DNA from: Thermoproteota archaeon
Lineage (GTDB): Archaea > Korarchaeota > Korarchaeia > Korarchaeales > Korarchaeaceae
Assembly: GCA_027491415.1 (NCBI GenBank)
Contig: JAOZFH010000063.1
Coordinates: 32,768-96,767, forward strand
DNA: 64,000 nucleotides
Direction of reading: 5' to 3'
The position numbers and the translations under genes are program-made. This document shows, piece after piece, positions 11,010 through 36,756 of the stretch. Position 1 is the first letter of the stretch. Each line of letters opens with the position of its first letter. The notes beneath the pieces are model-generated. The model did no database searches, was not told the DNA's origin, and was given only the letters and a program-made list of their open reading frames with translations.

Positions 11010-11015
11010 GCCACA

Positions 11016-19936: not shown

Positions 19937-20029
19937 GGCCAAGCCCCGGCGAGGGATGGTGGTCCCCTCAACCGTCTCGCGAGGGTGGGAGGTCGTGTTG
20001 AGGGGCCCATTCCGGTGAGGGGTGGTTGT

Positions 20030-20665: not shown

Positions 20666-20795
20666 CCCTCCCCTCTCCCCCCGACCGGCGCGGGCCTCTC
20701 GGAGGAGGCTGGGTTCCCCTACGAAGCGGCAGAAGTTAGAGTCAGGGAATCAAAGCGCTAGATCTTCAGTCTGGTGGGGAATTAGGCTCTACAAG

Positions 20796-21476
20796 TCACG
20801 GCCACGACTCTGAGTCCCTGATCGAGTACTCTCTATCCACGCGGTACAGGGGGAACCCCATCTCGAGAAGCCTGGCGTACACCCACTCCATGGCGTCTAT
20901 CGCTCCCAAAATGTCCTCCTCATCGAATCCCCCCGGGAGTACGGCGACGTAATTCAGCGAAGCCTCAACGTCCAAGTCCCCGAACTTCAGCGTGACCAGG
21001 GTCTCGAATCGGCGGGTCGCCGCCGAGAAGACCCTCAGCGCGCCTGACAGGTATCTCGCAGCGTCCGGATACTCCTGTTCAAACTCCTCCCACGCCGATG
21101 GATCCCCCAGAAGATCCGGGGTGACTTTCTCCATTCCCTGGATCCTGCTGTCGTTCTCCTCGAAGTCGTAGAGGGGTCTCCACAGGGAGAAGAAGAATGG
21201 CCCGTACCTCGTTGCGACCGGGCCCGACCAGACGTACCAGACGGGGTCTGCGCCCCAGATCCGGACAAGGTCTAGCAGGCCCCTCTCCTCCACCGACCAA
21301 CCGGCCGCCCCAAGCGACACTCCGGTGGTGGCCGTGACCCTCGCCAGGTCGCTGAAATAGGAGACGTTGTCGGGCTCCCTGCACTCTGGCGTGTCAAAAG
21401 TTGACTTATAGTGGCACATTTCAACAAGATTCAAGAAAAATCTCGTGTAAACTTCTAATATCTTTTCTTTCTCCAC
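20796..21476 (-). CDS. Candidate immunity protein E4 (opposite strand)
   Basis: A 226-residue, more diverged member of the same family: GADPVWYVW, EQEYPDAARYLSGALRV and MEWVYARLLEMGFPLYRV align with E1-E3. It starts at GTG 21476 and runs towards E3. The remnant at 53525-53749 is closest to this type (KFGD/KFGV, MEWVY/MVWVYGRL). Its first third is AT-richer. Presumed to protect against another tip variant. Confidence 0.55.
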   Translation of the reverse strand: MEKEKILEVYTRFFLNLVEMCHYKSTFDTPECREPDNVSYFSDLARVTATTGVSLGAAGWSVEERGLLDLVRIWGADPVWYVWSGPVATRYGPFFFSLWRPLYDFEENDSRIQGMEKVTPDLLGDPSAWEEFEQEYPDAARYLSGALRVFSAATRRFETLVTLKFGDLDVEASLNYVAVLPGGFDEEDILGAIDAMEWVYARLLEMGFPLYRVDREYSIRDSESWP

Positions 21477-21686
21477 GCCCGCCCCCCGTGCGGCCCCTCA
21501 CGCGGGCTGGAGCATGGAGAGGTTGAGCTCGGGCCCTACCTCCGGAGCATCGTGGAGAGCAGGGGACTTACGGAGGTCCTCGAGCGACGGGGGGTGAAGT
21601 GGGCGGCGCGAACATCCGACGATCTTTAGGTCCGGTAGGAGTGGAGTCCTATTACGTGACCCCCTAGCCTGTGGGGCGGATGGGGG

Positions 21687-22767
21687 ATGGAGTGGAGAGG
21701 GGCCCTCCCCCCGTTGACCCTGACGGCGCTTCTGATGGTCTCCTCGGGGAGGCCCCCTGAGGCCTTCGACCTTCAGGCCCCACCTGGGGAGCTAGGCGAG
21801 TGCCCGAGCCTGAGGGAGTTCCCTCGTCCGTTCGTCAGGAACGGGACGGTGGACTACGACTGGGACGGCTCCCCAGACGTCGCCATAGTCGTGGGCACCC
21901 ACGGCGGCTCTTGGGTGGCGCCGGAGGACCTGAAGGCCGCCGTGCTCCTGGGCGCGAAGGTCGGGTCGCACCTCTACCTCGCGCGCCTCTGGGACTCTTA
22001 CGCGAACCTCACGGGCGAGTGGAGGGGGACCAGGCTGCTCGACCCCCGGAACGGGGACGCGACTCCCCCGGGAGAGGTGGACCTGATCTACGAGGGCGAG
22101 GACGTCTTCAGCTTCGTCAGGGCGCCGTTGGTCTGGTCAGACATCGAGATACTCGATGAGAACTACGAGCCCACTCAGGCGGCCCGGGAGCTGGGCCTGC
22201 TGGACAGGGATCTCATACTGGTGGGAGGGCCCGGAGCGAACCGGCTCGTGGACTACCTGAACGACTCCGGCCTCCTGTGGATCCCCTTCGCGGGACCGGC
22301 CCTACGACTCGGGGCTCCGCGGGGGGAACGGTGGAAGCGGGAGATGCGTGAATCCCGACCGCCTGGTCAAGCTCATACCCCAGCTGGCATACGGCCACGT
22401 GAGGGGGATGGGGGTGATCCAGTACGCCAGGGGAGATCCATGGGGGGAGAGGGAGAGCCGCATACTCGTGGTGGCCGGAGACAACGGGTACGGCACCCTC
22501 ATGGCGGCCGTCGCCCTGGCGGACCCCACTAGGATAGTCAGGGTGCCCGAGGACTCTGCGGTGGCGTTCTACGACCCGTCGAGGATCTGTGGCGGTGAGT
22601 TTCCCGCCGTCGTCGTGGCCAGCGTCGTCGAAGTGTCAGAGGGCCCAGGTCCGTGCTCGCCTCCCAAGGCCGCGCCGCCCCTGAGCCGGATCCCGGTCGT
22701 CGTGATCCTGTGGCCCTGGCCAGCTGAGGCGGTTCCCGTGGGCCGGCCCTGCGCCGGCGGGGGGTGA
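21687..22767 (+). pseudogene. S-layer-domain secreted protein with a frameshift
   Basis: Two frames make one protein. The first (from ATG 21687) has a hydrophobic N-terminus, PDVAIVVGTHG with a following helix, and DLILVGGPGANRLVDYLN. Around 22285-22300 homology moves to the other frame, which continues GMGVIQYARGDPWGE and ILVVAGDNGYGTLMAAVAL up to TGA 22765-22767. The trio IVVG, LILVGGP-N and VLVVAG is the repeating pattern of archaeal S-layer domains. A frameshift, real or from assembly, breaks it. There is no visible C-terminal anchor; the end is Pro-rich. Confidence 0.6.
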
Positions 22768-22862
22768 GCCGTGGACAAGCCGAGGTCACCTCGCGTCGGC
22801 TGGGCCTACCCCGCGGTATGGTATCAACTTATTATATCAGATATCTTTCAATGATATAGAAG

Positions 22863-23078
22863 ATGCAGGTGCTCGTCAGACTCGACGAGGAGACGGGCAG
22901 GCTCTTGGACAGGGTAGCCCGAAGCCTCGGAGTCTCCAGGGCCGAGGTCGTGAGGAGGGCCCTCAGGCTGTACCTGGCCAGGGGGAGGGGGAGGATGACC
23001 AAGAGGATGAGGGGGATAGTCAGGCCTAAGCTCTCGCTCGAAGAGCTGGAGGAGCTCTACTGGGAGGGCGCCCGTTGA
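22863..23078 (+). CDS. Ribbon-helix-helix antitoxin (VapB type)
   Basis: 71 residues opening with a beta strand (QVLVRLDEE) and two helices typical of CopG-like ribbon-helix-helix proteins, then a basic tail that would bind the toxin. TTATTATAT near 22829 is the promoter. The PIN toxin gene starts inside its stop codon, so this is a VapBC operon that likely represses itself. Confidence 0.8.
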   Translation: MQVLVRLDEETGRLLDRVARSLGVSRAEVVRRALRLYLARGRGRMTKRMRGIVRPKLSLEELEELYWEGAR

Positions 23079-23542
23079 GGATCTTCCTGGACTCCTCGGT
23101 CTTCCTGCACCTCCTGCTAGACGGACCCAGGGCAGACGAGGCCGAGGAGATCCTGAGCGCTGTGGAGGAGGGAGAGGAGGAGGCTGGCGTCACGGTGATG
23201 GTCGTGGAGGAGGTGGCCTACAAGCTCCTGGTGGCCAAGGCCTCGGAGCTCGGGGTTGCTGGACCCCTGGAGCTGAGGAGGAGGCTGCTCAGGGACGGGG
23301 AGCTCAGGGAGAGGTGCCTCGAGCCGGTCGAGGAGTTCAGTCGCTACCTGAGGGGCATGGGCGGGCTCTCGTGGGTGAGGATTCTCCCGGTCGACTGGGA
23401 GGCCGCGCTGGACCTGGTGCGGAGGGCGGGCCTGCTCCCAGCGGACGCCGTGCACGCGTCGGTGAGCCTCAGGCTCGGGCTCAAGATGGCGACGTTCGAC
23501 TCTGACTTCAGGAGGGTGCCCGGGCTCGAGGTCATCCCCTGA
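23075..23542 (+). CDS. PIN-domain ribonuclease toxin (VapC type)
   Basis: A 155-residue PIN protein. The conserved acidic residues are visible: Asp in IFLDSSV at the start, Glu in VVEEVAYKLL, Asp in PADAVHASV and Asp in ATFDSDF. Such toxins cleave tRNA or rRNA. TTG 23075 overlaps the antitoxin stop. The partner is the upstream ribbon-helix-helix protein. Confidence 0.85.
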   Translation: MRIFLDSSVFLHLLLDGPRADEAEEILSAVEEGEEEAGVTVMVVEEVAYKLLVAKASELGVAGPLELRRRLLRDGELRERCLEPVEEFSRYLRGMGGLSWVRILPVDWEAALDLVRRAGLLPADAVHASVSLRLGLKMATFDSDFRRVPGLEVIP

Positions 23543-23657
23543 GGGGCTGTGGTGGGCGGAGGAAGTCGCGGGTGGGGCCTCCGTCGCCGCGAAGCGGGGT
23601 TCCGGTCGCCCACTGAGTTCAGCGTGGGGCTTCGTGGAACCAGGCCACTCCTGGGGC

Positions 23658-24128
23658 TTACCTCGTCAGCTCCCTGTGACTGACGAGTTTGCGGTGATTG
23701 AATCCCCTCCTCCTCAAGAACTCCTTGAATCGGCCGTCGAGGGTGAGGGCCGGCGCGTCGAGCCTCTCGGCAGTCGCGTAGAGGGCCGCGTCGTACAGGT
23801 CGCTCCACCCGGCGGAGATCACGCGATACGCGATCTCCAGATCTTCGTCTGTTGGGGGGACCAGCTCCACCAGCGCCCCGTGGACCACGGAGTTGAACCC
23901 GTCGAGGGCCGCCCTGGGCAGTCTGTCCATCCCCCTCTCCCTGCCCACCTTGTAAAGCACGCCCTCGAGCTCAGCCAGCATCAACGCCGGGTAGAGGGGC
24001 CGGTGGGACCTGAGGATCACGTCCAGGCGAGTCGGCCCCACCCCCACCCTTATGCCGAGGTAGGGGAGGAGGTACGTCGTGTCCAGCAGGAGCTCACCCG
24101 ATCGCCCCCCTCGAGAGATCCTCGCCAA
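23658..24128 (-). CDS. PIN-domain ribonuclease toxin (VapC type)
   Basis: 156 residues with PIN acidic motifs: LLDTTYLL at the start, LAELEGVLYK, YDAALYAT and TLDGRF. It overlaps the antitoxin gene by 35 bases when started at TTG 24128; a shorter start just before LLLDTTYLL would need a CTG. Second gene of a VapBC operon. Confidence 0.8.
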   Translation of the reverse strand: MARISRGGRSGELLLDTTYLLPYLGIRVGVGPTRLDVILRSHRPLYPALMLAELEGVLYKVGRERGMDRLPRAALDGFNSVVHGALVELVPPTDEDLEIAYRVISAGWSDLYDAALYATAERLDAPALTLDGRFKEFLRRRGFNHRKLVSHRELTR

Positions 24129-24330
24129 ACTCCTCGACCTCCTCCGGACCGACCTCCGCCCAGTACTCTCCGGGCTTGGGCCTCTTCACCGGCCTGAGCC
24201 TGATCTCCCCATCCCTCACCTCAATGGCGACGAGGTCTCCCTCCTCAATCCCGAGAGCCTCGACAACCCTCTTGGGAATGTACAGGGCGTACCTCCTCCC
24301 GACCCGAATGGTCGTAGTCGTCTGATTCAT
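24094..24330 (-). CDS. AbrB-type antitoxin (VapB)
   Basis: 78 residues: the swapped-hairpin AbrB fold at the N-terminus (TIRVGRRYALYIPKRVVEALG, GDLVAIEVRDGEIRLRP), then an acidic C-terminal tail for toxin binding. ATG 24330 is preceded by AT-richer sequence. It pairs with the PIN gene that overlaps its end. Confidence 0.85.
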   Translation of the reverse strand: MNQTTTTIRVGRRYALYIPKRVVEALGIEEGDLVAIEVRDGEIRLRPVKRPKPGEYWAEVGPEEVEEFGEDLSRGAIG

Positions 24331-24404
24331 CGGATAATTCCGAGCGATCTGACCCCTTAAGGTTTCCGTGGCCCGCGGCGGAGGCGCGAACCGATTCCGC
24401 GGGC

Positions 24405-24995
24405 TCAGGGGTCCAGATCCAACAGCAGCCTGGCGGCCTCGGCGGCCGACGAGACGTTCCTGTCCCCCCGGGCCTTCTCGCCCACGATCACCGTGAACAC
24501 CCCCAGCCTCCTGCCGGCCTCGGCGTCCCAGGGCATGTCCCCCACCAAGGCGGTCTCCCCCGGCTTCGCTCCGACCTCGCGCATGGCCGCAGCCAGCTGG
24601 ACGTCCCTCGACATTCCGTCCTCCCTGGTCACGACGACGTCGAACAGGTCCCTGACACCGAGGCCCTCCAGGGCGGTGAGGGCGGGCCTCCTGGCCTGCA
24701 GCGTCACCAGGGCTATCTTGACGCCCTTGGACCTCAGCGCCTCCAGGGCGCTCCTGAGCTCCGGATCCGGCCTCGCCTGCCTGGCCGCCTCGAGCTCGGC
24801 CTCCTCCACGATCCTGAAGGCTTCCTCCTCCAGCTCCCTGTCCCCCCTGGCCGCGACGGGTATGCTCGGGCCGAGGGGCTTGAGCGGGTGGTCCGTGCCC
24901 ATGAACTCCCTGACCCTCGCGCGCAGGGCGTCCCAGTCTATTGGAAGGTTTGCCAGGGTCCCGTCCAGGTCGAACGCGACGAGCTTGAGGCCCAC
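24405..24995 (-). CDS. HAD-superfamily phosphatase
   Basis: A 196-residue haloacid-dehalogenase-like hydrolase. Motif I is FDLDGTLA (nucleophile Asp, residue about 8), motif II is ALVTLQ, and motif IV is VGDMPWDAEAG with the metal-binding Asp residues. The helical cap is between motifs I and II, as in phosphoglycolate phosphatase-like members. The substrate cannot be told. Confidence 0.85.
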   Translation of the reverse strand: MGLKLVAFDLDGTLANLPIDWDALRARVREFMGTDHPLKPLGPSIPVAARGDRELEEEAFRIVEEAELEAARQARPDPELRSALEALRSKGVKIALVTLQARRPALTALEGLGVRDLFDVVVTREDGMSRDVQLAAAMREVGAKPGETALVGDMPWDAEAGRRLGVFTVIVGEKARGDRNVSSAAEAARLLLDLDP

Positions 24996-25083
24996 GGGCC
25001 TGATGCGCCGGGGGATCGATATATAGCTCGGGGGCGGGGTGGGTGGAAAGGGTTATATCGCCGCCCCACAAGCTATCCGGCGG

Positions 25084-25161
25084 AGCCCCGTGGTGTAGCC
25101 AGGTCAAGCACGCCGGGCTCTGGACCCGGCGACCCCGGTTCGAATCCGGGCGGGGCTACCA
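25084..25161 (+). tRNA. tRNA-Gln (anticodon CTG)
   Basis: Acceptor AGCCCCG pairs with CGGGGCT; the anticodon stem-loop is CCGGG-CTCTGGA-CCCGG and the T arm CCCGG-TTCGAAT-CCGGG. The 3' CCA is encoded. TTATATC at about 25050 is the promoter. No intron. Confidence 0.93.
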
Positions 25162-25280
25162 CTCCCCTCCTCATTTTCGGCTGGCGGCGCGCAGACCCCT
25201 GACCCTGGGTTCGCCCCCTCCGGTCCGCCTCAGAGGTTGAAGCGATGCGTTAATTTCGAAGGGGGCTCCCTGGCCGCGCC

Positions 25281-25781
25281 GTGGACGGGGAGGCTCTGCT
25301 CCACGCGTCGCTCGGTCTGATCGCGTGGCCAGCCCTCATACCGCCGATGAGCGCGCTGGTCGAGTCCGGCCACCTCGCCTACTCGTTCCTCCTGACCCTC
25401 GCGGTGCCGACGGGCGTGGCCTATCTCCACTTCAGGCTGGAGCGGAGGCTCGATCCAGAGCGCAGGCTGAGGCTGGCCAGGCTTCTGCTCGCGGGGCTAC
25501 TGGCCGGCTCCCTCGCGTCGGCGGCCCTGGCGGGGGCCCTGCTGTGGAGGGTCAGCCCCGCGAGGGTCGCCGAGCTCACCGTCTCCGCCGGCCTGGGGGT
25601 CGTGTTCAGCCTGAACTTCTGGAGCGGCGCGTTCCTCGTCGCCTCCCTGCTCTGCGCGATTGTCACTTCCTCCAGGGCTGAGGTTCCGAGGCCCGTAGAG
25701 GCGGCCGCCCACTTCGCCGCCCTCACGGCGTCGGGAGGGTCGGCCATCCTGCTGGCCTACCTCCTCGCAGCCGGCCACTAA
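25281..25781 (+). CDS. Polytopic membrane protein, 166 residues
   Basis: Five hydrophobic segments with an Arg-rich loop (RLERRLDPERRLRLAR) after the second. GTG 25281 follows the tRNA gene by 120 bases. Size and topology resemble the family D membrane proteins of the island, but no conserved block is shared. Unknown function. Confidence 0.55.
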   Translation: MDGEALLHASLGLIAWPALIPPMSALVESGHLAYSFLLTLAVPTGVAYLHFRLERRLDPERRLRLARLLLAGLLAGSLASAALAGALLWRVSPARVAELTVSAGLGVVFSLNFWSGAFLVASLLCAIVTSSRAEVPRPVEAAAHFAALTASGGSAILLAYLLAAGH

Positions 25782-25796
25782 GGTAGGTGAATTCGA

Positions 25797-25827
25797 TTCC
25801 ACCCAGCTTTATATAATGTGGGTGGAA
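25797..25827. promoter_or_regulatory. TATA box inside a perfect 9-base inverted repeat
   Basis: TTCCACCCA (25797-25805) and TGGGTGGAA (25819-25827) are exact inverted copies, flanking TTTATATA (25808-25815). A further half-site TCCACC lies at 25833-25838, right before the start. A protein bound here would block TATA-binding protein, so this is a likely operator for the ATPase gene. Confidence 0.65.
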
Positions 25828-25839
25828 CATAATCCACCT

Positions 25840-27216
25840 ATGATGACCGTGGAGGGGTTCGTGGCCAACAGACTGGCCGCGGCCCCCGGAGAGTGGAGGA
25901 GGCTCGTCGGTGGTAAGTTCAGGAGGTGGATCTTCTACAGGCTCAGGTCGATCCTCAGGAGATTCCTCGCTGGCGGAAAGACTAGGCTTGTCATAGTGCC
26001 GGGGCTGAGGGGGGTCGGGAAGAGCACGGTCCTGTGGCAGATCTACGGGGCCCTGCTGGAGGAGGGGATGGACCCCGGCAGGGTTCTCCATCTCCCCGTC
26101 GATCAGATGCTCGCCTACACGGGTAGCGACAGCGTGCTTGAAGCCTACGAGGCCTTCTCCCTGCACTCCAGGGGCAGGCGGGTCATGCTCGTCGATGAGA
26201 TAACCTACTCCGGCAGGTGGCCCCTCGAGCTGAAGGTGCTCTACGATAGAGATCCGGACATGGCCTTTGTCGTGGTCGGCTCGTCCTCCCTCCACCTCAG
26301 GGTGGCGGAGAGCGCGGATCTGGCCAGGAGAGCGGTCGTTGAGCCACTCTTCCCCATGAGCTTTGGTGAGTACCTCGGCGTGAGGGGGTCCCTGGGTCCC
26401 GTCAGGGTGGCCAGAGACCTAGAGGAGGCCGTCTACTCGCTGCCGCCCGGGGAGGCGCTGGAGAAGCTCAGGAAGGTGGAGGAGGACGTTATCTCTGACA
26501 GCAGGGGCTTCAAGCCAGATAGGGATCTGAGGGAATTCCTCGAGATCGGCGGCCTCCCGTTCTCGGCCCTGGCGGACGACAGGCTGGTAGCCTGGAGGGA
26601 GGTGGTGGACACCGTCCAGAGGGCGGTGGATGTGGACCTCCGGGGAGTCAGCTCCTTCGACCAGGAGACGGTGGTCAAGGCGAAGAGGCTAGTCTACTCC
26701 CTCGCTCTGTCTCAGGGGGCCGCCGTTAACCTGGCCAGGCTGGCCGGGGAGATAGGGATGGACAAGAAGACTCTGCTGAAGGTCGTGGACGCGCTCGAGA
26801 AGTGTGAGCTCATCTTCAGGGTCCGCCCCGCCGGAGAGCGAGCCGCCAGTGTCAGGGTCCACAAGGCGTACTTCGCCACCCCTACCCTCAGGGTGGCGAT
26901 CAGGAGGGAGGCCGGGTTTAAGACGGACAGCCTGGGGCTGCTGGCTGAGGAGGCCGTTGCCGCCTCCCTGAGGAAGGCCGCCTTCCTTGGGAGGGGGGGC
27001 TTCGGAGGAGTCGGGTACCTGCCGACCGACGGGGGGGTCGACTTCGTCCTAGAGGGCATGGGCGGGCGGAGGGTGCTCGTCGAGGTCGGGGTCGGGAGGA
27101 AGGAGAGGGGGGCCGTGTCGCGGGCTCGGGGGAGGGGGATAGTGGTCCACGGAGGGGGGTTAAGGCTTGAGGGAGACGTGCTCTTCGTTCCTCTCTGGCT
27201 CTTCCTGCTGGTATGA
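25840..27216 (+). CDS. AAA ATPase of the DUF4143 type (second member)
   Basis: About 458 residues: Walker A GLRGVGKST, Walker B VMLVDEIT, sensor VVGSSSLHL, a winged-helix middle (GEIGMDKKTLLKVVDAL) and a C-terminal nuclease-like domain (GGVDFVLE, VLVEVG). ATG 25840 is preferred over the frame-opening ATG at 25816, because the TATA box at 25808-25815 would put the transcript start at about 25838. Compared with 3889-5100 it is about 60 residues longer. The role of these ATPases is unknown; they are often found near toxin-antitoxin genes. Confidence 0.8.
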   Translation: MMTVEGFVANRLAAAPGEWRRLVGGKFRRWIFYRLRSILRRFLAGGKTRLVIVPGLRGVGKSTVLWQIYGALLEEGMDPGRVLHLPVDQMLAYTGSDSVLEAYEAFSLHSRGRRVMLVDEITYSGRWPLELKVLYDRDPDMAFVVVGSSSLHLRVAESADLARRAVVEPLFPMSFGEYLGVRGSLGPVRVARDLEEAVYSLPPGEALEKLRKVEEDVISDSRGFKPDRDLREFLEIGGLPFSALADDRLVAWREVVDTVQRAVDVDLRGVSSFDQETVVKAKRLVYSLALSQGAAVNLARLAGEIGMDKKTLLKVVDALEKCELIFRVRPAGERAASVRVHKAYFATPTLRVAIRREAGFKTDSLGLLAEEAVAASLRKAAFLGRGGFGGVGYLPTDGGVDFVLEGMGGRRVLVEVGVGRKERGAVSRARGRGIVVHGGGLRLEGDVLFVPLWLFLLV

Positions 27217-27317
27217 CCGAGCAGAGGAAAAGTTCTGCCTAGAATACTGCTAGTGGTTCGACTTGTGCTTACAATCCAAATTTTAGTTATTTAGGTTTGA
27301 TTGTGAGTAATTTAAGA

Positions 27318-28406
27318 CTATATCCATTTTTCTAATGTTTCAAATTTTACTTCTGTTTTCTCCTCTTTTAAGATTTTTCCGAATTTTTCTTTGGCGTATT
27401 TTCTCGTAAAGTAATCGAGAGGATCCTTAACTCTCAGGGGTTTCCAATAGATTACATAGTATTCCTTGCCATCTCGGGAAAGTTCGTCTGCTAGTTTTAA
27501 TTTTACTAACAATCTTAGTATCTTTCTCAAAAGAGACTTGCTAAATTGTGGGATCTTACGCCCATCGTGGGAAGAAATAAAGAAATTTTCCGCAAGCTTC
27601 TGATATAACTCATCGAAGCTAAATTCGATTCTGATCTTGCCTTCATTGCGCATTCTAAGCAGACTATCGTCGCTCAATATGTCATACGATTTGGGCAAAA
27701 CTTTCAAATAGAACTGTACCAACACAAAGGGGATCAAATAATCTTCAACTTCTTCCTCTAGTAGGAATATTTCATTCATGCGCTGGTGAAGAACTGGAAG
27801 TTCAACCGAGAAAGTGCTTTGGAGTTTACGCTGAAATTCTTTAAAGGCCGAACCTTTAAACTGGCCATAAGATAGTGAGAGTACGAGCATCTCTCCTTCA
27901 ATTCCTCTGTCGCTTCGCCTTTTATGTAAAAAATAGTTTATGATTGAAAGCCCGTGTGTGAGCTGATTTTTTATCCCTTCTAGCATTTCAATCAATAATG
28001 CTTGAAACTTATGGAGCCCGCCCTGAATCAGGAGAAATAATTGATAATTAGTTAACCAACCCTCCCTAATATCCCTATCATATTTTTCAAGCTGTCCGAT
28101 TATCTTACTTACAATGCGATCATTTTCCAGCTCACTCAAACCCTCAGGATTAGGCAAAGATGATTTGAGTTCTCCGACTGCATATTCTCCACGTATATGG
28201 ATAAGTAAATCCGGAGTTACCCGCTTATCTTGGTCAGTCCGTAACTTAGGACGAAGAAAGCACTCCCCTCCACATTCCCGCGCCAGTATCATAAGGGAAA
28301 TCGTGGCCCACAGACTCTTAACATAATCATCTATTCTCATTTTCGATCTTTTTATGAATTCTTCAACTTTTCTTAGAGTTTCACTGCCATTATCCGGGTT
28401 GCCCAT
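27318..28406 (-). CDS. AT-rich cassette protein 2, nuclease-like
   Basis: A 362-residue protein, far lower in GC than the neighbouring genes and Lys/Ile/Phe-rich. Near residue 65 it reads RVTPDLLIHI, then GEYAVGELKSS: a D...(D/E)xK arrangement found in restriction-endonuclease-like folds. The rest is helical with no motif that I recognise. The start overlaps the preceding gene by 17 bases, so the two form one operon. A defence or mobile-element role is a guess based on composition, the motif and the accessory setting. Confidence 0.6.
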   Translation of the reverse strand: MGNPDNGSETLRKVEEFIKRSKMRIDDYVKSLWATISLMILARECGGECFLRPKLRTDQDKRVTPDLLIHIRGEYAVGELKSSLPNPEGLSELENDRIVSKIIGQLEKYDRDIREGWLTNYQLFLLIQGGLHKFQALLIEMLEGIKNQLTHGLSIINYFLHKRRSDRGIEGEMLVLSLSYGQFKGSAFKEFQRKLQSTFSVELPVLHQRMNEIFLLEEEVEDYLIPFVLVQFYLKVLPKSYDILSDDSLLRMRNEGKIRIEFSFDELYQKLAENFFISSHDGRKIPQFSKSLLRKILRLLVKLKLADELSRDGKEYYVIYWKPLRVKDPLDYFTRKYAKEKFGKILKEEKTEVKFETLEKWI

Positions 28407-29451
28407 ACAAAACCTCCCCCTCCAACCCCTCGAGCAAAGATGCTAACAGATGATAGGAAGATAGTATTGACCTTGTGTTTATCCCGTTAATGTGGATTTC
28501 ATTACCCTTATAGAGCATCAAACTGTAGGAATCCCCAGTTTGATAGTCATATACCTCCAAGATGGCGTAGGGATTGCTGATCACTATGGGTGACACTCCC
28601 CATCTCGGTAGGTTCTTTCTGACGAATTGGATGAAATTTTCTATTCCTTCACGATCTTCGAAAACGTTTTTATCTAGTTTGACTACTACTCTGCTGATCC
28701 TCCTTGGGCGTGGTTTAGCGATGATGTAAAGGTAAATTGAATTTAGGACGTATGACCTTAATATTTCCCAGCCGTCAGACCTAATTATAGAGATTATCCC
28801 ATCTCTACCAATGCTGTATTTTATCCCTCCATGTGGTGTCTGCAAAGTACAGGTTGCCCTATGCATCCATAGCTTAGCCAAACGAAGCTTTTCTCGAGCT
28901 TCATCTAACGTCAAACCCTTTCCAAGAAAGGAGGACCCTCCTTTAAGATAGGATATCGATGTCTCCGGTTTTTTGCCGAAATATCTCATTCCAACAATCC
29001 TGACGACCCTCAGTTCCTCCGACATTTTTTTCATTTTTTCTAAAATATTCCATAGATCCCTTTCTCTAAATCTTAAAATCTGAAATGTGGGATATAGTTT
29101 TTTCAATATGGAAATAAATTTTTGGAAAGACGCACTACCACCAACACCAAAAGCTATCACGGGTTGAAACTTTTCTGAAGGTACTAGGAGATAATAGTTT
29201 TCTCCAGACTCCCTTCCCCCTTCCGTCTTGAGTTTAAAAGGCGTTACCCTGTAGATGACATAACCCTCTTTTTCTTTAATTTCTTGGAAATATTTCCTAA
29301 TTCCTGCCACGTTATTCACTAGAAAGCTGACCTTAGGGCTAGCCCATCCCAATAATATCTTTAGCTTTCTGATAGACCCCTCCCCTATTTTTAGCTGATC
29401 TTGTATTATTTTATTATAAAGTTCCATGTTTACTGTGCTTGACCCTTCCAT
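28390..29451 (-). CDS. AT-rich cassette protein 1, unknown
   Basis: A 353-residue alpha/beta protein, Lys/Ile-rich, with the same low GC as its downstream partner. No family is recognised. A Gly-rich run (FGVGGSASF) and alternating strands suggest a soluble enzyme-like or binding fold. It is the first gene of the two-gene cassette. AT-rich leader sequence lies upstream (29452-29490). Confidence 0.55.
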   Translation of the reverse strand: MEGSSTVNMELYNKIIQDQLKIGEGSIRKLKILLGWASPKVSFLVNNVAGIRKYFQEIKEKEGYVIYRVTPFKLKTEGGRESGENYYLLVPSEKFQPVIAFGVGGSASFQKFISILKKLYPTFQILRFRERDLWNILEKMKKMSEELRVVRIVGMRYFGKKPETSISYLKGGSSFLGKGLTLDEAREKLRLAKLWMHRATCTLQTPHGGIKYSIGRDGIISIIRSDGWEILRSYVLNSIYLYIIAKPRPRRISRVVVKLDKNVFEDREGIENFIQFVRKNLPRWGVSPIVISNPYAILEVYDYQTGDSYSLMLYKGNEIHINGINTRSILSSYHLLASLLEGLEGEVLYGQPG

Positions 29452-29713
29452 CGTCTCAATGGAGAGAGATTAGAACATAAACTTTGCATATAAGCAATGA
29501 GCCCTGTCTCCCGTCGTGAAACCAGACTTTCGCGAAATCACGAGGGGAAGGAGGGAAGCCCTCCGACGTTGTCCTTCGCCCAAGCGGCAAGTTTTCTTCC
29601 CTAAGGCTCGCCTCCAGTCCTGAAGAGACCTGTAGTCGGGCGGCCCTGCCCCCGCTGCCTGGGGCGTGGCGGCCGTGGAAAAGGATTAAACGGTCGGTGT
29701 CGCCGCGAGGCGC

Positions 29714-30256
29714 GTGAGCCGCGCGAGGCCCTCCAGGGCCCTTGTGGTGGGGAGGTTCCAGCCCTTCCACTTCGGGCACCTGCACGCGATAAGGTACGCA
29801 ATGAAGCACGCCGAGGAGATAGTAATCGGGCTCGGCTCCTCCCAGATAGCCTTCACCCTCAGGAATCCCCTGACGGTGGACGAGCGGTACGAGATGATCG
29901 TCAGGGCCCTGAGGGCCGAGGGGCTCCCCCTCGGCAAGTTCTACTTCTCCCCCATCCCGGACACGGAGTCGCCCGAGGAAGATTGGGGCCGGATAGTGCT
30001 GGACAGGGTGCCGAGGGTGGACGTGGCCTTCTCAAACGACAGGGAGACCCAGGAGGACCTCTCGAGGGTGGGGATCGAGGTCAGGCCCATCCCCTTCTAC
30101 AGGAGGGACCTCTTCCAGGCCACCCACATCAGGGAGATGGCCGCCAAGGGGGACCGTCTCTGGAGGCAGCTCGTGCCCAGGCCGGTCGCCCAGTTCCTCG
30201 ACGAGGTGGGGTTCGAGGCCCGCATGCGCTCTATAGCCGGGAACAGGCCCGGGTGA
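29714..30256 (+). CDS. nadM: Nicotinamide-nucleotide adenylyltransferase, archaeal type
   Basis: A 180-residue enzyme that joins NMN and ATP to make NAD. The nucleotidyltransferase signature is VVGRFQPFHFGHLHAI (residues about 11-26), the GSSQIAFTLRNPLT segment is the family's, and ATHIREM near residue 138 is the second ATP-binding motif. Length is normal. GTG 29714 is about 30 bases from a TTAAAC element. Soluble cytoplasmic enzyme of NAD salvage and synthesis. Confidence 0.93.
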   Translation: MSRARPSRALVVGRFQPFHFGHLHAIRYAMKHAEEIVIGLGSSQIAFTLRNPLTVDERYEMIVRALRAEGLPLGKFYFSPIPDTESPEEDWGRIVLDRVPRVDVAFSNDRETQEDLSRVGIEVRPIPFYRRDLFQATHIREMAAKGDRLWRQLVPRPVAQFLDEVGFEARMRSIAGNRPG

Positions 30257-30274
30257 TGTGGGGCGGGCAGAGGA

Positions 30275-31867
30275 TCACTCCTCGCTCGGCAGGACGCCCA
30301 GCCTGTCCCTCCTGGCCGCCTCGAGTATCCTCCTCCCGGCCGGGCTGTTCCTGGCCAGGGTTATCCTCCCCCTGGAGTCGGTGGTGAGCCTGACGAACTC
30401 CCTGCCGTCCACCGTTATGATGACCTCCTGGTCAGCCCTCTCCGGGCCCAGGTCGAGCACCACGGTGTGCTTCCTCCTGATGAGCCTGTACCTGAGGCCC
30501 TCCTCCGCCCTCTCGCGCCTGGCCCTGGCCCTCGCGGCGGCGCCGGGCCTCAGGGGCATCACCACGACCTCGTCGCCGAAGGTGTAGATCTCGTACTCCG
30601 GCACGCCCGTCTCGAAGTCGCTGACCAGCACGACGGGCCTGGCGAGGGAGGTGTCCTGCATGCCCGTCGGGAGCTTCACGGTTATCCTCAGGCTGTAGAC
30701 CTTCACGACCCTGCCGTCCCTGATGAAGATCACCGTGTCGACCACGTGCGGTAGCAGGCCCAGGTCCACCCGGCGGATGAACCTCTGCACCGCCTCGATC
30801 GGCGCCCCGCAGTGGACCACGCCGACCATGCCTATGCCCGCGAGCCTCATGTCCGTGAAAACGTTGAAGTCGTCGGTCTTCCTCATCTCGTCGAAGATGA
30901 CGTAGTCCGGCCGGACCAGGAGGAGCAGGTCGGCCGTGCCCTCGAAGCTCGGGCCGAGCTTGCCGTACTGAGTGATCTCGGGGCCGACCATGAGGTCCCT
31001 GGGCGACTCCAGGGTCTTCACTATCTTCCCCAGCGACCTGTAGAACTCCGCCAGGGCGCTGGCGAACGTCGTCTTCCCGGCCCCCGGGGGGCCAGCTATC
31101 ACCACGCCCTCTGCCCTCTCCGCGAGCCTCTCCTTGAGCCTCTCGCTCAGCTCGTAGTCGTCCAGCGTGACCCTCACCACCGGCCTGACGGCCGTGATCT
31201 CGATCCCGTCGGAGAACGGGGGAAGGGCCACCAGCACCCTGTACTCCCCGAACTGGATCACGTAGGCCCCCTTCCTCCTGACCTCCACGAAGGCGCCCGG
31301 GTCTATCTTGGCGAGCTCGATGATCTCGTAGGCCATCTTCTGGAGCTCCTGCGTGGTGAGCGGCTCTTCCCTCAGCTTCACGAGCCTGAACTCCCCGGGC
31401 CTGCCCCTCTTGGCCATCGGCGGGGCGCCCTCCTTGAGGTGGACGCTCATGGTGTCCTCCGTGAAGAACTCCTCTATGGCGAGCCTGCCCCCCTTGGGAC
31501 CGACGTACTCGACCCTCACCCCCCTCAGCCTCAGTGAGACCGCCCTTATCGAGTCCCCGGTCAGGACCGTGGCTCCGTGAGGCTTGGCAAGCTCCTCCAG
31601 GGCGTCCACCCCGCTCTTGGCGTGCTCCGCCAGCTCCAGGGCGGATATCTCGCCAGCCTTCTCCAGCTCTCTGAGCCTGGCCAGCTCGGCCAGCGCCGCC
31701 AGGTGGGTCCTGTCCCCGCGGGAGGCGCCCCTCTCGAGCCACCTGACGAGCCCCTTGGGGACGATTATCTTCGCCCCCCTCACCCTGCTCCAGAGCCTCT
31801 CATCCCTCAGGAGGCCCTGAATGAGCACCTGCTCGTCTATCACGTAGGAACTCACGGCTCCGCCCAT
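30275..31867 (-). CDS. PIN domain-ATPase-KH protein (PilT-like, COG1855)
   Basis: A 530-residue archaeal fusion. An N-terminal PIN-like domain (VIDEQVLIQG, VLTGDSIRA) covers about residues 5-140. The middle is a secretion-type ATPase with Walker A GPPGAGKTT and Walker B VIFDEMRKTDD. The C-terminus has a KH-like RNA-binding domain (about 460-515). The family is nearly universal in archaea; a role in RNA metabolism is assumed. It ends 18 bases from the convergent nadM gene and closes the translation cluster. Confidence 0.9.
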   Translation of the reverse strand: MGGAVSSYVIDEQVLIQGLLRDERLWSRVRGAKIIVPKGLVRWLERGASRGDRTHLAALAELARLRELEKAGEISALELAEHAKSGVDALEELAKPHGATVLTGDSIRAVSLRLRGVRVEYVGPKGGRLAIEEFFTEDTMSVHLKEGAPPMAKRGRPGEFRLVKLREEPLTTQELQKMAYEIIELAKIDPGAFVEVRRKGAYVIQFGEYRVLVALPPFSDGIEITAVRPVVRVTLDDYELSERLKERLAERAEGVVIAGPPGAGKTTFASALAEFYRSLGKIVKTLESPRDLMVGPEITQYGKLGPSFEGTADLLLLVRPDYVIFDEMRKTDDFNVFTDMRLAGIGMVGVVHCGAPIEAVQRFIRRVDLGLLPHVVDTVIFIRDGRVVKVYSLRITVKLPTGMQDTSLARPVVLVSDFETGVPEYEIYTFGDEVVVMPLRPGAAARARARRERAEEGLRYRLIRRKHTVVLDLGPERADQEVIITVDGREFVRLTTDSRGRITLARNSPAGRRILEAARRDRLGVLPSEE

Positions 31868-31935
31868 ACCACTACTTCACTCTCCACCTTCAGGGTTACG
31901 TGGGGGGTCTCCAGAAATAAAGCGAGGTGGTTCAC

Positions 31936-32520
31936 TCAGACCAGCAGCTCGTCCTCCTCGAATATCCTCTTGTGGGCCACGAAGATGAGGTACCTCTCGT
32001 CTCCGGTGAGCTCCTCCATCACTCTGTCCCCGATCGCCCCGGGAGGGTCTCTCAGGCCGGTCCTCTCCTCCACGTCCGAGAACGACTTGAAGGGCCTCTT
32101 CCTCCTCTCCTCCAGGATCTTCAGCATCAGCTTCTTCCCGACCCCCGGCAGGAGCTCGAGCTGGTGGAGGCGGGTAGTGACGGGACGGGCCTCGTTGAAG
32201 AACTGAACGAAGAACTCCTCCCCCTCCACCACGGCGCTCCTCACCGTCTCCTCCAGGTGCCCTTGGGCCGGGCCCCTCAGCTCCGGGTAGGAGAGGTACC
32301 TCAGGAACCTGCTGACGTAATCTCTCTGGCCCTTCCCGACGTAGACCTTCATCCCGGGCTCCACCTGGGCGCCGGGCCTCACCGCAAACTCCATCAGGAT
32401 GAAGTACCTGTCCCCGAGAACCTGGGCCCTCCTAGAGGGCTCCCCGTATACGTCAAGCACGTAGGCCCAGCCGTCGTGGGGCTTCCTCCTACCCGGAACG
32501 TACCTCCACAAGTCAGACAC
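31936..32520 (-). CDS. DUF655 protein (OB fold plus helix-hairpin-helix)
   Basis: About 195 residues. GTG 32520 is used since the frame upstream is Arg-only shadow of rpoF; homologs begin near VSDLWRYVPG. An OB-like domain (YFILMEFAVRPGAQVEPGMKVYVG) is followed by helix-hairpin-helix motifs (LELLPGVGKKLMLKIL), suggesting nucleic-acid binding. It sits after rpoF in the usual archaeal order eL21-rpoF-DUF655. Confidence 0.85.
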   Translation of the reverse strand: MSDLWRYVPGRRKPHDGWAYVLDVYGEPSRRAQVLGDRYFILMEFAVRPGAQVEPGMKVYVGKGQRDYVSRFLRYLSYPELRGPAQGHLEETVRSAVVEGEEFFVQFFNEARPVTTRLHQLELLPGVGKKLMLKILEERRKRPFKSFSDVEERTGLRDPPGAIGDRVMEELTGDERYLIFVAHKRIFEEDELLV

Positions 32521-32530
32521 CTCGAGCGGC

Positions 32531-32983
32531 CTACTCGGAATCCTCCCCCTCCTCGGGGCCTTCCTGCGCCTCCTCGCCCTCCGCCTGGGCCGCCGCCTCA
32601 GACTGGGCCTCGACCGCCTCCTCAGCCTCAACCTCGGCCTCTGCCGGCGCCTCGGCCTCCTCCAGTCCCTTGAGCACCTCGAGGATTCCCTTGTAGGCCT
32701 TCTCGTCTAGGAGCGGGTAGGAGCGGAAGAGGAAGGGCCTGAGCTCGTCCGGCGTCTTGGGGAGGACGTTGACCAGCTGGATCGCGTCCTCCTCCGACAG
32801 GTCGTACTCGCTCATCAGGACCTCGACGGCCCTCCTGGCCGCCTTCGGGTCCCTAACCTTCGTGAACTTGGCTAGGTACTCGAAGAGCCTCCTCTGGTCC
32901 GGGGTTAGGGCAGACTGGTCCCTGGCCCACCTCTCGAATATGAGGTCCCTGACCTCGGCGAGCGTCAGCGGCTTCTTCTCCAA
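32531..32983 (-). CDS. rpoF: RNA polymerase subunit F (Rpb4 homolog)
   Basis: 150 residues. The HRDC-like Rpb4 core is about residues 1-110 (LTLAEVRDLIFERW, LSEEDAIQLVNVLP). The last 40 residues are an Ala/Glu-rich acidic tail not normal for the family. With subunit E it forms the polymerase stalk. It is 6 bases downstream of the eL21 gene. Confidence 0.88.
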   Translation of the reverse strand: MEKKPLTLAEVRDLIFERWARDQSALTPDQRRLFEYLAKFTKVRDPKAARRAVEVLMSEYDLSEEDAIQLVNVLPKTPDELRPFLFRSYPLLDEKAYKGILEVLKGLEEAEAPAEAEVEAEEAVEAQSEAAAQAEGEEAQEGPEEGEDSE

Positions 32984-32989
32984 GCCGCC

Positions 32990-33307
32990 TCATCCTCCCG
33001 AACCCGGGGCGGGCTCGGAGTGTGGCTTCAGGTGAACAGGCGGTACTATCAGGTGCTTGACCTTGCCCCCTACCCTCACGTCGACGAGGTAGGCCCTGCC
33101 CCTCTTCCCCACGACCACGCCGACCTTCCCCTGGTACCTCCTGTGCGGTATACCCTCCCTCTCGGACGGCACCACGTCTATGACCACCTTCTGGCCCACC
33201 TTGAACTCCTGAAAGAACCTCGACAGCGGAGGCAGCCCTCTCTCTCTGGGACTCTTTCGCAGGAATTCCCTGGACCCGTGTAGGTATCCCTTCGACTTTC
33301 TCGTCAA
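32990..33307 (-). CDS. rpl21e: Ribosomal protein eL21
   Basis: 105 residues with family blocks SKGYLHGSREFLRKSPRERG and HRRYQGKVGVVVGKRG, and a C-terminal HLKP. TTG 33307 is the start; GGTGATTTGAA precedes it. A component of the large subunit, it lies between pus10 and rpoF as in many archaea. Confidence 0.93.
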   Translation of the reverse strand: MTRKSKGYLHGSREFLRKSPRERGLPPLSRFFQEFKVGQKVVIDVVPSEREGIPHRRYQGKVGVVVGKRGRAYLVDVRVGGKVKHLIVPPVHLKPHSEPAPGSGG

Positions 33308-33329
33308 TTCAAATCACCTTCCGTCCGGC

Positions 33330-34598
33330 TCAAGCCCTCGGGGTCAGCACGGCCATTACGTCGAGCTCCCTACAAAAAGCTTTTTTCCCCAGTATCGAGG
33401 CGACGCTCGGCCTGGTCCTTCCCTCGTCCCCCGAGACCAGTTCCTTCACGTACAGGCCGCCGTCACACTCGACGATCATCTCGAAGGTCCGATCGTCGAT
33501 CCTGCGAGTCGTCACCCCGTAGACCCTCTTTCGCCTGAGCAGGTCGCTCCTGCGCCTGAGCACCCTCGTGGGGGTCCTCTGGTCTATCGTGGCGCCCTCC
33601 AGCTCGGCCTCGAGTCTCTTGAGCTCGTCGTCGGTCACGCCGCCCTCGACCTCCACCAGCGCCCTGTAGACCTTCCGCGTCTCGGGGGCGCCCTCCTTCA
33701 GGGTCCTGATGAGCGAGGGCTCCGCGTACCTCAGCCCCACCACGGCGACCTTCTCCTCGGCGGACCTGTTGATCTCCTCCTGGAGTTCCGCCAGGTCCAC
33801 CCTCCTCTTCCTCGGCCTGACGACCTCTAGGACGAAGGGCCTGCCGGTGCCCAGCATCCTGGCGTCCACATCCTCCCTCCCGGCCGCGTGGATGTGGTAG
33901 TCCTCCGCCTGAAAGGCCCTCTTGGCGACCTCTCCTATGAGGGCCTCCACAGAGTCGGCATACCTGTACCCCGTCCAGCCGCACTCCTCGCATCCCCTGC
34001 CTCCGCAGCTGGGGCAGAGCCACCTGGCCTGGGATATCCCCCTGGCCAGCTTCAGGTACCTCCCGGCCAGGTAGACGGGATTTACCGTGATCCTCACCTC
34101 TCCCCTCCAGAGGTCCAGCAGGCCGACCAAGTCGGGCCTCACGGGGTCTATCCTGGCTCCCGTGATCGTTGAGACGACGTCGTCCGCCATCCGGGAGAGG
34201 GTGACCTTGGGGGACTCGGCCGTCCAGATCCCAAGGCTGGCCCTGACCTCGTCGTGCGCCTCGTGGACGTGCGGCGGGAGGACTGCGCCTCCCTTGAAGG
34301 TCTCGAACTCGTACTCCGACAGCCCCTGCAGCAGGTCGGAGACCAGCTCGGGGAGCGCCGAGGGTACCTCGCCCCCGCAGACGGAGCAGGAACCCCGTAG
34401 TCCGGAGGAGGCCTTCTTCCCCCTCTCCCCTCCGGCCTCAGCCTCGAGCGCCAGAACGGCGTGCCCCAGTATCCAAGAGCTGACCCTCCTGTCGAGGGAT
34501 GAGAGGAGGCTGCCGGCGCAGTAGGGGCAGACCTCCCTCTCCAAGAGTAGGCCGAGGAACCTCTCCAGCGACCTCTTCTCGGCTGCGAGCCTGGGCAA
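33330..34598 (-). CDS. pus10: tRNA pseudouridine synthase Pus10
   Basis: 422 residues. The N-terminal half has Zn-binding CPYC and CSVC pairs and a THUMP-like region, with a second Cys cluster (CPSCGGRGCEECG) about residue 190. The catalytic region reads AAGREDVDARMLGTGRPF with the nucleophile Asp. It makes pseudouridine 54/55 in the T arm of archaeal tRNAs. The end of the gene has VKELVSGDEGRTRPS, the usual closing motif of the family. Confidence 0.92.
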   Translation of the reverse strand: MPRLAAEKRSLERFLGLLLEREVCPYCAGSLLSSLDRRVSSWILGHAVLALEAEAGGERGKKASSGLRGSCSVCGGEVPSALPELVSDLLQGLSEYEFETFKGGAVLPPHVHEAHDEVRASLGIWTAESPKVTLSRMADDVVSTITGARIDPVRPDLVGLLDLWRGEVRITVNPVYLAGRYLKLARGISQARWLCPSCGGRGCEECGWTGYRYADSVEALIGEVAKRAFQAEDYHIHAAGREDVDARMLGTGRPFVLEVVRPRKRRVDLAELQEEINRSAEEKVAVVGLRYAEPSLIRTLKEGAPETRKVYRALVEVEGGVTDDELKRLEAELEGATIDQRTPTRVLRRRSDLLRRKRVYGVTTRRIDDRTFEMIVECDGGLYVKELVSGDEGRTRPSVASILGKKAFCRELDVMAVLTPRA

Positions 34599-34639
34599 CT
34601 CTGCCGTACTCTCCCGGGGGCGCCAAACGCTCTGAAACC

Positions 34640-35047
34640 TCAGCTCGGGCCCTTGACCTTCATCACCTTCTTCTTACCCAGCGCCTCCCAGTACTCCACC
34701 TCTGCCCCGGACTCGACCTTGGACCGCTCCTCCTCGTCTACAGCGGACATGGGGAGTTCGAAGGTCTCGTAGGTCTCGAGGTCCATCAGCTGTATCGTGT
34801 CGCCCATGACCGCCAGGACCTGGGCGGACCTCTTGGAGATTATAGGGATCTCGACGTCCGCGTCCGCCGGGAAGATCTTGGACCTCCGGGTTCCATCGAA
34901 CAGCCCCCTGGCCTCGACCCTCACCTTCGCGGCGCCGTGCTTCCCTGGCTTAGACTTCGCAACGCTGAGGACGACGCACGGCTCACCGTCGATGACGACG
35001 TAGCTGCCCTTCTTGAGGTCGCCGGCGGAACCGTGGGTAACTCCCAT
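34640..35047 (-). CDS. eif5a: Translation factor aIF5A
   Basis: 135 residues: an N-terminal SH3-like barrel with the hypusine loop SKPGKHGAAK (the second Lys is modified in homologs) and a C-terminal OB domain. It helps elongation over difficult peptide sequences. ATG 35047; gene between uS9 and pus10 on the same strand. Confidence 0.93.
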   Translation of the reverse strand: MGVTHGSAGDLKKGSYVVIDGEPCVVLSVAKSKPGKHGAAKVRVEARGLFDGTRRSKIFPADADVEIPIISKRSAQVLAVMGDTIQLMDLETYETFELPMSAVDEEERSKVESGAEVEYWEALGKKKVMKVKGPS

Positions 35048-35087
35048 CTAGCTCACCAGGCTGGCCCCGGGGGCTCCGATTAAAAGC

Positions 35088-35522
35088 TCACCTGTAGGAC
35101 TTCTGGAACCTGGCCCTGGCGCGCCTCCCTCCGAACTTCTTGGGTTCCCTCTGCCTGGGGTCGCCCGCGAGGATCGTCCTGTCGTACTCCCTGTAGAGCT
35201 CCTCCAGGCGCTTGGACCCGGTGTACCTGACGAGGGCCCTCCCTATGGCCATCCTGGCGGCGTCGGCCTGGGCCATAAACCCGCCTCCCCTCACCCTGAC
35301 GAAGATGTCCAGGCCCCCATAGACCTCCTCTCCCGCAAGCCAGAGCGGCTCGAGGATCTTCATCCTCACAAACTCGTTGGGGGCGTACACCTCCACCGGG
35401 AAGCCGTTGATGTACAGCCTCCCGCTGCCCCTCCTGATGACCGCGAAGGCCCTAGCGGTCTTTCGGGAGGCGGAGGCGTGCGCCAGGACCTCGCCCACCT
35501 TCTGCTGAGCCTGCCCGCTCAT
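35088..35522 (-). CDS. rps9: Ribosomal protein uS9
   Basis: 144 residues; the family ends in basic RARFQKSYR as here, and begins with a strand (SRKTARAFAVIRRGSG). The C-terminal tail reaches the P-site tRNA. ATG 35522 overlaps the stop of uL13 by four bases. Confidence 0.95.
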   Translation of the reverse strand: MSGQAQQKVGEVLAHASASRKTARAFAVIRRGSGRLYINGFPVEVYAPNEFVRMKILEPLWLAGEEVYGGLDIFVRVRGGGFMAQADAARMAIGRALVRYTGSKRLEELYREYDRTILAGDPRQREPKKFGGRRARARFQKSYR

Positions 35523-35986
35523 GCCACCTCACCCCTCCAGCCCAGCTGCTTCGCGAGCCACAGGACCGTGACGCTCTTGACGCCCGGCTTGGGCCTCAGG
35601 TGATCGACGGTGTACTTCTCGCCCAGCTCAACCGGCTGGGCATTCTTAAGCTCCGGCGGGACGCCGATGTAGACCCTCAGCCTCCGGAGGGCCTCCCTGC
35701 CCTTGGCCTTCTTCATGGGCAGCATGCCCCGGACGGTCCGCCAGACGATCCTGTCGGGAGTCCGAGGCTGAACCGGGCCCCTCTCTGGCTTGGGCTTGCC
35801 CTGGATTGCCCTCCTCTTCAGGTACTTGGAGAGGACCGTGGACGGGTTGCCCGTTATGACCGCCTTCTCCGCGTTGACTATGGCCACCCTCCTACCCTCG
35901 AGGAGCTGCTTGGCCACGTAGCTGGCCATCCTGCCGAGGATCTTCCCATCGGCGTCGACGACTACGTCGAAGTTGGTCAAGCCCAT
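35519..35986 (-). CDS. rpl13: Ribosomal protein uL13
   Basis: About 155 residues from ATG 35986 (MGLTNFDVVVDADGKILGRMAS is split over the typical start). The family block KILGRMASYVAKQLLEG and VRGMLPMKKAKGREAL are present. Frames reaching further upstream run through the end of eL18 and are not credible. Confidence 0.94.
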   Translation of the reverse strand: MGLTNFDVVVDADGKILGRMASYVAKQLLEGRRVAIVNAEKAVITGNPSTVLSKYLKRRAIQGKPKPERGPVQPRTPDRIVWRTVRGMLPMKKAKGREALRRLRVYIGVPPELKNAQPVELGEKYTVDHLRPKPGVKSVTVLWLAKQLGWRGEVA

Positions 35987-35990
35987 CACC

Positions 35991-36356
35991 TCACGCCAGT
36001 ATCTTGACCCCCGACCCCTTGGGGTTCTCTTGGGCGAGCTCCACGAGTGACACGGCCTTCCCGCCGGCCTCGGAGATCTTTCTCCTGGCGGACTCGGAGA
36101 AGGACAGCGCCGCAACGGTCACCGACTTAGTTATCATCCCCTCGCCCAGCACCTTGCCGGGAACCACCACGACATCGTCGGGACCGGTGTACTTGTCTAT
36201 CTTCCAGAGGTTCACCTCTATCCTTCTCCTGGTGGGCTTCCTCAGCCTCTCGGCCACGTCGGCCCATATCCGAGAGCCGGCGAGCCTCGAGGCTTTCTCT
36301 AGGGCGTTGATCGTCCGTATGGTCTCGGGGTTCGTTGGGCCCGTTGGCCTCGGCAT
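35991..36356 (-). CDS. rpl18e: Ribosomal protein eL18
   Basis: 121 residues from ATG 36356: PTGPTNPETIRTINAL and VVVPGKVLGEG are family blocks. First gene of the eL18-uL13-uS9 operon. TTTATTAA (near 36395-36402, minus strand) about 40 bases upstream is its promoter. The rest of the 36357-36632 interval holds no gene that I can support. Confidence 0.94.
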   Translation of the reverse strand: MPRPTGPTNPETIRTINALEKASRLAGSRIWADVAERLRKPTRRRIEVNLWKIDKYTGPDDVVVVPGKVLGEGMITKSVTVAALSFSESARRKISEAGGKAVSLVELAQENPKGSGVKILA

Positions 36357-36632
36357 ATCGGCTCGCACCTTCCTGGCACGCTGCCCACCCGCGTTAATAA
36401 ACGTGGCCTCGCCGGTGGGGCTGAGCCCCAATACCCCTCCCGGGCGAGTTGACCGATCCTCAGGAGGCCGGGGGGATCGGAGGACTGCTCTGAAGGGCAG
36501 ACCTGCCGACGCGGGCTGAACGGCGCTGTTTGATCCCCTCCCCCTCCACCACGGGCCTCTCCGGTCCACGTGGCGGGAGAGCCCTCGAGACTCCCCGTGC
36601 CTGGAGGCGAGTCCGAGTCAGGGGATTTTGGG

Positions 36633-36721
36633 TGGTGCGGGGGGTGGGATTTGAACCCACGCGGGCCTACGCCCACCCGCCCCTCAAGCGGGCGCCTTGG
36701 ACCAGGCTTGGCTACCCCCGC
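36633..36721 (-). tRNA. tRNA-Leu (anticodon GAG)
   Basis: A class II tRNA with a long variable arm. Acceptor GCGGGGG pairs with CCCCCGC; the anticodon stem CCCGC/GCGGG encloses TTGAGGG; the T arm is GTGGG-TTCAAAT-CCCAC. CCA is encoded. Its TATA box (CTTTTTAT, minus strand near 36750) overlaps the end of the rpoD gene. No intron. Confidence 0.9.
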
Positions 36722-36756
36722 CCGAGGCAAGGGTGGATGGGTCCGCGATAAAAAGT

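What the first reader, a model, noticed from the sequence alone, without database searches (positions are those of the whole stretch)
27318..29451. AT-rich two-gene cassette with a nuclease-like motif
Two overlapping genes of about 350 codons each stand out by low GC between GC-rich neighbours. One carries TPDLLI followed by GELKSS, a D...ExK arrangement. Neither is a family I know; a defence system is possible.
Basis: partly seen in the sequence, partly recalled or inferred. Interest (0 to 1): 0.68.

Follow-up and report, generated by a model that had tools for sequence, protein, structure and literature searches.

The report
Orphan nuclease-like gene pair in archaeon
A recently acquired, AT-rich pair of overlapping genes, absent from the closest sequenced relative and unlike any catalogued protein found here, encodes a probable DNA- or RNA-cutting enzyme and an unknown partner, and may be a small defence or mobile-element module, although its function is not shown.

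Summary
Two overlapping minus-strand genes (27318-28406, 362 aa; 28390-29451, 353 aa) have 39-40% GC and GC3 of 0.39-0.42, against GC3 of 0.84-0.94 in neighbouring archaeal genes. A congener, G001, has both flanks at 94-96% DNA identity but only an unrelated 128 bp GC-rich spacer between them. The cassette is therefore a lineage-specific segment of about 2.3 kb, most likely acquired.

The pair is an orphan in everything searched: Pfam, NCBIfam, PADLOC, PHROGs, phages, plasmids, viral contigs, GTDB contigs and roughly 200-350 archaeal genomes.

D66, E79-x-K81 and also Q105-x-x-x-Y109 sit in an order that fits a RecB-type PD-(D/E)xK nuclease. A C-terminal winged helix (about 256-325) is the best-modelled part. 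The nuclease fold itself could not be verified, because single-sequence models reach pLDDT 36-41. The partner has no assignable fold.

A defence or mobile-element module is plausible but unproven. No defence island surrounds it; the one hint is that the neighbouring AAA_14/DUF4143 ATPase matches a PADLOC candidate family. A conserved housekeeping operon is excluded.

The parts
27217..29511 (.). AT-rich insertion: the segment present here and absent from congener G001, where 128 bp of unrelated GC-rich spacer joins the same flanks
   Evidence: blastn of the window against G001:C12: homology 20070-27216 at 94.2% and 29512-37829 at 96.2%, adjacent in G001 apart from a 128-bp spacer of 71% GC; GC profile
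28390..29451 (-). first gene of the operon, 353 aa, orphan, no assignable domain (P0002)
   Evidence: ORF; no match above noise in Pfam, PADLOC, PHROGs, NCBIfam; no relatives in genomes, viruses, plasmids, phages; model pLDDT 36
27318..28406 (-). second gene, 362 aa, predicted PD-(D/E)xK (RecB-type) nuclease with C-terminal winged helix (P0001)
   Evidence: ORF and sequence; D66, E79xK81, Q105xxxY109; winged-helix part of the model and Foldseek matches to wHTH proteins
28074..28214 (-). coding stretch of the candidate nuclease motif, residues 65-111 (PD...ExK...QxxxY)
   Evidence: direct reading of the translation; motif positions and shuffle counts
27432..27641 (-). coding stretch of the predicted winged-helix domain, residues about 256-325
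   Evidence: the region of the single-sequence model with the highest block pLDDT (60-71 in residues 261-270 and 291-320); helix 264-274, helix 290-302, strands 306-311 and 314-321
28413..28420 (-). Shine-Dalgarno-like GGGGGAGG just before the ATG of the second gene, inside the first gene: suggests translational coupling
   Evidence: direct reading of the minus strand, GGGGGAGGTTTTGTATGGGC
29486..29497 (-). archaeal TATA-box-like element TTGCTTATATGC about 35-46 nt before the first start codon
   Evidence: direct reading of the minus strand; not statistically tested

Best explanation
The finding is a horizontally acquired two-gene operon, inserted between an AAA_14/DUF4143 ATPase gene and an NMN-adenylyltransferase-like gene of a GC-rich archaeon. 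The downstream gene encodes a metal-dependent nuclease of the PD-(D/E)xK superfamily (D66, E79, K81 and RecB-type Q105xxxY109), tethered to a C-terminal winged helix that would bind nucleic acid. The upstream gene encodes a partner translated first and coupled to it, most likely a recognition or regulatory subunit of the same complex. The pair would act as a small restriction-like or effector module against foreign nucleic acid. Shown: the operon layout, foreign composition, absence in the congener, and lack of relatives in the searched collections. Inferred with moderate support: the nuclease and winged-helix assignments. Inferred only: complex formation and the defence role.
For: Two overlapping ORFs with a strong ribosome-binding site for the second inside the first. 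Foreign codon composition and an empty site in G001 with flanks at 94-96% identity. The D-ExK-QxxxY order is rare in shuffles and in other ORFs. [quoted passage not shown] PMC1913061), and QxxxY is a RecB-like nuclease motif (PMC4454674). The winged helix is the best-modelled region and retrieves MarR, PadR, HlyU, ORC and crenarchaeal-virus F93 wHTH proteins. The adjacent ATPase matches PADLOC candidate family PDC-S01.
Against: No profile library recognises the nuclease domain even at relaxed E-values. The AlphaFold models were made without an alignment and are poor (pLDDT 41 and 36), so the fold is not confirmed; the best Foldseek E-value for the nuclease gene is 0.11 and to a wHTH protein, not a nuclease. 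The motif statistics are post hoc. There are no homologues, so neither residue conservation nor recurrent pairing can be tested. No defence island was found.
Confidence: 0.4

Rival explanations
1. The cassette is the remnant or cargo of an archaeal virus or plasmid: genes for replication, packaging or takeover (nuclease plus partner) left after integration, with no host-protective role.
For: AT-rich and absent from the congener. No relatives in cellular genomes, as is common for archaeal virus genes (PMC4625639, listed, says many proteins of crenarchaeal viruses lack detectable homologues). The winged helix retrieves STIV and SSV1 F93 among others, and a 49-aa PHROG of unknown function matches weakly at 0.0013.
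Against: No integrase, capsid or replication gene, no tRNA target and no terminal repeats at the borders. No match in viral contigs, phages or plasmids.
Confidence: 0.3
2. The D..ExK motif is a coincidence: the pair is an acquired operon of unrelated function (for example a regulatory or structural pair) whose downstream protein merely has a winged helix.
For: The bare D..ExK pattern occurs in about 10% of shuffles. No family library supports a nuclease. Only the winged helix is modelled with any confidence.
Against: The added QxxxY at a fitting spacing, in a predicted helix after the ExK strand, is much rarer.
Confidence: 0.22
3. A toxin-antitoxin pair: a nuclease toxin with its cognate antitoxin translated first.
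For: Two overlapping genes, the nuclease second, and two PIN-domain proteins (VapC-like) within 5 kb.
Against: Both proteins are about 350 aa, unusually large for a type II toxin-antitoxin pair (general knowledge), and no antitoxin family is recognised.
Confidence: 0.08

Closest known systems
PD-(D/E)xK nucleases with the RecB-type QxxxY motif (RecB, HsdR nuclease domains; from general knowledge also Cas4 and NucS)
   Same: D - ExK - QxxxY order, the acidic residue and ExK in adjacent predicted strands, QxxxY in the following helix
   Different: No profile match to any Pfam or NCBIfam member; C-terminal winged helix in place of helicase or Fe-S elements; fold unverified
Two-gene nuclease-plus-partner antiviral systems (for example Hachiman HamAB, described in PMC12278908, listed)
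   Same: Short operon with a predicted nuclease effector and a second protein that could be the sensor
   Different: The partner has no helicase, ATPase or other recognisable sensor domain; no similarity to any PADLOC model
PADLOC candidate PDC-S01 (AAA_14/DUF4143 ATPases)
   Same: The gene next to the cassette (25816-27216) matches it (E 3.5e-22)
   Different: That gene is GC-rich, on the other strand, convergent and present in the congener without the cassette, so it is not part of the pair

Membership tests
PD-(D/E)xK nuclease superfamily | Catalytic motif D ... (D/E)xK | tested here: met
   D66 ... E79-L-K81 in P0001; the bare pattern alone is not significant
[quoted passage not shown]
   Predicted element order is compatible, but model pLDDT is about 40 and Foldseek shows no nuclease among the best 50
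PD-(D/E)xK nuclease superfamily | Conservation of the motif across homologues | not testable with these tools
   No homologue was found
PD-(D/E)xK nuclease superfamily | Profile match to a known family of the superfamily (common but not required: members often escape sequence methods, PMC1913061) | tested here: not met
   No Pfam or NCBIfam nuclease model at E up to 10 and 1 respectively
RecB-like subgroup | QxxxY motif after ExK | tested here: met
   Q105-L-E-K-Y109, 24 residues after K81; motif described in PMC4454674
Known anti-phage defence system | Match to a catalogued defence protein | tested here: not met
   No PADLOC match for either protein
Known anti-phage defence system | Location in a defence island or recurrence near defence genes | tested here: inconclusive
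   Only the neighbouring ATPase clearly matches a candidate defence family; the other neighbours are housekeeping, PIN or unassigned genes; no second copy exists to test recurrence
Housekeeping operon | Present in close relatives | tested here: not met
   Absent from G001 at the same site and from all relatives searched
TATA-binding-protein-like fold (considered for the partner) | Profile similarity to TBP | tested here: not met
   hhalign probability below 1%, same as shuffled controls; Pfam scan of the C-terminal part empty

The most novel reading that the evidence does not exclude
The pair is a previously undescribed archaeal two-component immune system: a RecB-like nuclease with a winged helix guided or triggered by a partner of a new fold, carried on a rare mobile cassette.
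Probability: 0.2. Interest if true: 0.6.

Novelty: new member of a known kind. Interest (0 to 1): 0.36.

Why it matters
If the nuclease prediction holds, this is a new family of the PD-(D/E)xK superfamily with an unknown partner, found in a sparsely sampled archaeal phylum (29 genomes held) and gained or lost between two species of one genus. That would make it a candidate for a new defence or mobile-element module. As it stands it is an orphan pair whose main firm result is its patchy, probably recently acquired presence.

Tried and rejected
Weak genome hits were examined and discounted. L002 in G014 lies in a frame with 8 stops across the end of a Cas6 gene. L003 lies beside thymidylate-synthase- and methionine-synthase-like genes. 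L004 is a Cdc48-like ATPase. L037 is a DRG-like GTPase, L036 a DnaG-like primase and L033 a Hef-like helicase; these names are my reading of the sequences. L034 and L035 have stops in frame. A TBP-like C-terminus and an internal repeat in the partner, suggested by reading the sequence, failed hhalign and shuffle tests. Structure searches with the single-sequence models gave no match at E of 0.001 or better; only the winged helix is usable. Terminal or long direct repeats marking a transposon were not found. Sequence searches of the PDB gave nothing significant. Laying the whole genome in the Python box was not available. A radical-SAM search of the own genome was uninformative for this question.

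Full report
Observation. On the minus strand the order of transcription is 29451-28390 (353 aa, P0002) and then 28406-27318 (362 aa, P0001), with a 17-nt overlap. The second start codon is preceded by GGGGGAGG at a normal spacing inside the end of the first gene, and a TATA-like TTGCTTATATGC lies about 40 nt before the first start. This is the layout of one operon with coupled translation. GC is 0.39-0.40 and GC3 0.39-0.42, against GC3 0.84-0.94 in the eight neighbouring genes examined.

Surroundings. The window lies in an archaeal genome of 1.78 Mb (63 contigs, 96% complete) from a phylum with only 29 genomes held. To the left lie PIN-domain genes, a HAD hydrolase, tRNA-Gln, a predicted membrane protein and an AAA_14/DUF4143 ATPase. 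To the right lie an NMN-adenylyltransferase-like gene, a PIN/ATPase gene, DUF655 and Pus10. The adenylyltransferase-like and PIN/ATPase genes stay adjacent in relatives across the family and class, while among the loci read the AAA_14 gene is next to them only in this genus. The cassette therefore sits at the edge of a conserved block.

Empty site. The same-genus genome G001 matches 20070-27216 at 94.2% and 29512-37829 at 96.2%. Between the two matches it has only 128 bp of spacer with 71% GC, unrelated to the cassette. Neither gene is found elsewhere in G001. Given the composition and the absence of both genes from all other relatives, gain in this lineage is more likely than loss in G001, but two genomes cannot prove the direction. 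No integrase, tRNA target or terminal repeat marks the borders.

Relatives. No relative of either gene was found in 101 related genomes, in the own phylum, or in a second archaeal phylum of 115 genomes; for P0001 a third phylum of 152 genomes was also empty. These sets overlap in part, which leaves roughly 200 genomes for P0002 and 350 for P0001. None was found in GTDB contigs, viral contigs, phages or plasmids. The GTDB and viral scans rest on exact short peptide patterns from a single sequence, so they find close relatives only. The weak hits were spurious.

What the proteins are. P0001 carries D66, E79-x-K81 and Q105-x-x-x-Y109. The bare D..ExK pattern is cheap, found in 10% of shuffles. 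The whole series is found in 2 of 20000 shuffles with a strict pattern and in 388 of 20000 with a relaxed one. Among 427 ORFs only one other protein carries it, a 451-aa protein beside a Cas6 gene in G014. These patterns were written after the sequence was seen. The predicted element order fits the superfamily core described in PMC1913061, and QxxxY is a RecB-like nuclease motif (PMC4454674). The C-terminus, about 256-325, folds in silico as a winged helix with block pLDDT up to 71 and retrieves winged-helix proteins in the PDB, though at weak E-values. A weak, sub-threshold Pfam match to the ORC2 winged helix points the same way. The rest of the model is unreliable. P0002 has no profile match above noise and no usable model.

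Mechanism. The most economical reading is a nuclease that binds nucleic acid through its winged helix and is directed or restrained by the co-translated partner. Acquired restriction-like or antiviral modules fit the gene number, composition and patchy distribution, and so do the leftovers of a virus or plasmid. The only local hint for defence is the neighbouring ATPase that matches PADLOC PDC-S01, and that gene belongs to the flank shared with G001, not to the cassette. I put 0.4 on the nuclease module with a defence-like role, 0.3 on a virus or plasmid remnant with no host-protective role, 0.22 on a chance motif and 0.08 on a toxin-antitoxin pair. The first two share the nuclease prediction and differ in the role.

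Verdict. This is an orphan, probably recently acquired operon with a candidate new PD-(D/E)xK family. Function cannot be settled without homologues or biochemistry.

Noticed in passing
L032 (G014:C55:1-4770), 466-4189: A Cas6 gene (Pfam CRISPR_Cas6, E 2.3e-11) lies next to an unassigned 451-aa protein with the same D-ExK-QxxxY series and an unassigned 521-aa protein: a possible unusual CRISPR-associated locus in a related archaeon.
   Followed up: partly
window 23075-24350: Two PIN-domain genes, one of them next to the AbrB-like end of a minus-strand ORF (VapBC-like), in the stretch left of the cassette.
   Followed up: partly
window 1001-1700 and 11001-11700: Two other short stretches with GC below 0.48 in an otherwise 55-70% GC window.
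   Followed up: no
window 18430-20665: Three successive plus-strand ORFs share a start-proximal motif (LEKEVLxAILSEYG and variants), a local tandem family; the one tested (19310-19936) has no Pfam match.
   Followed up: no
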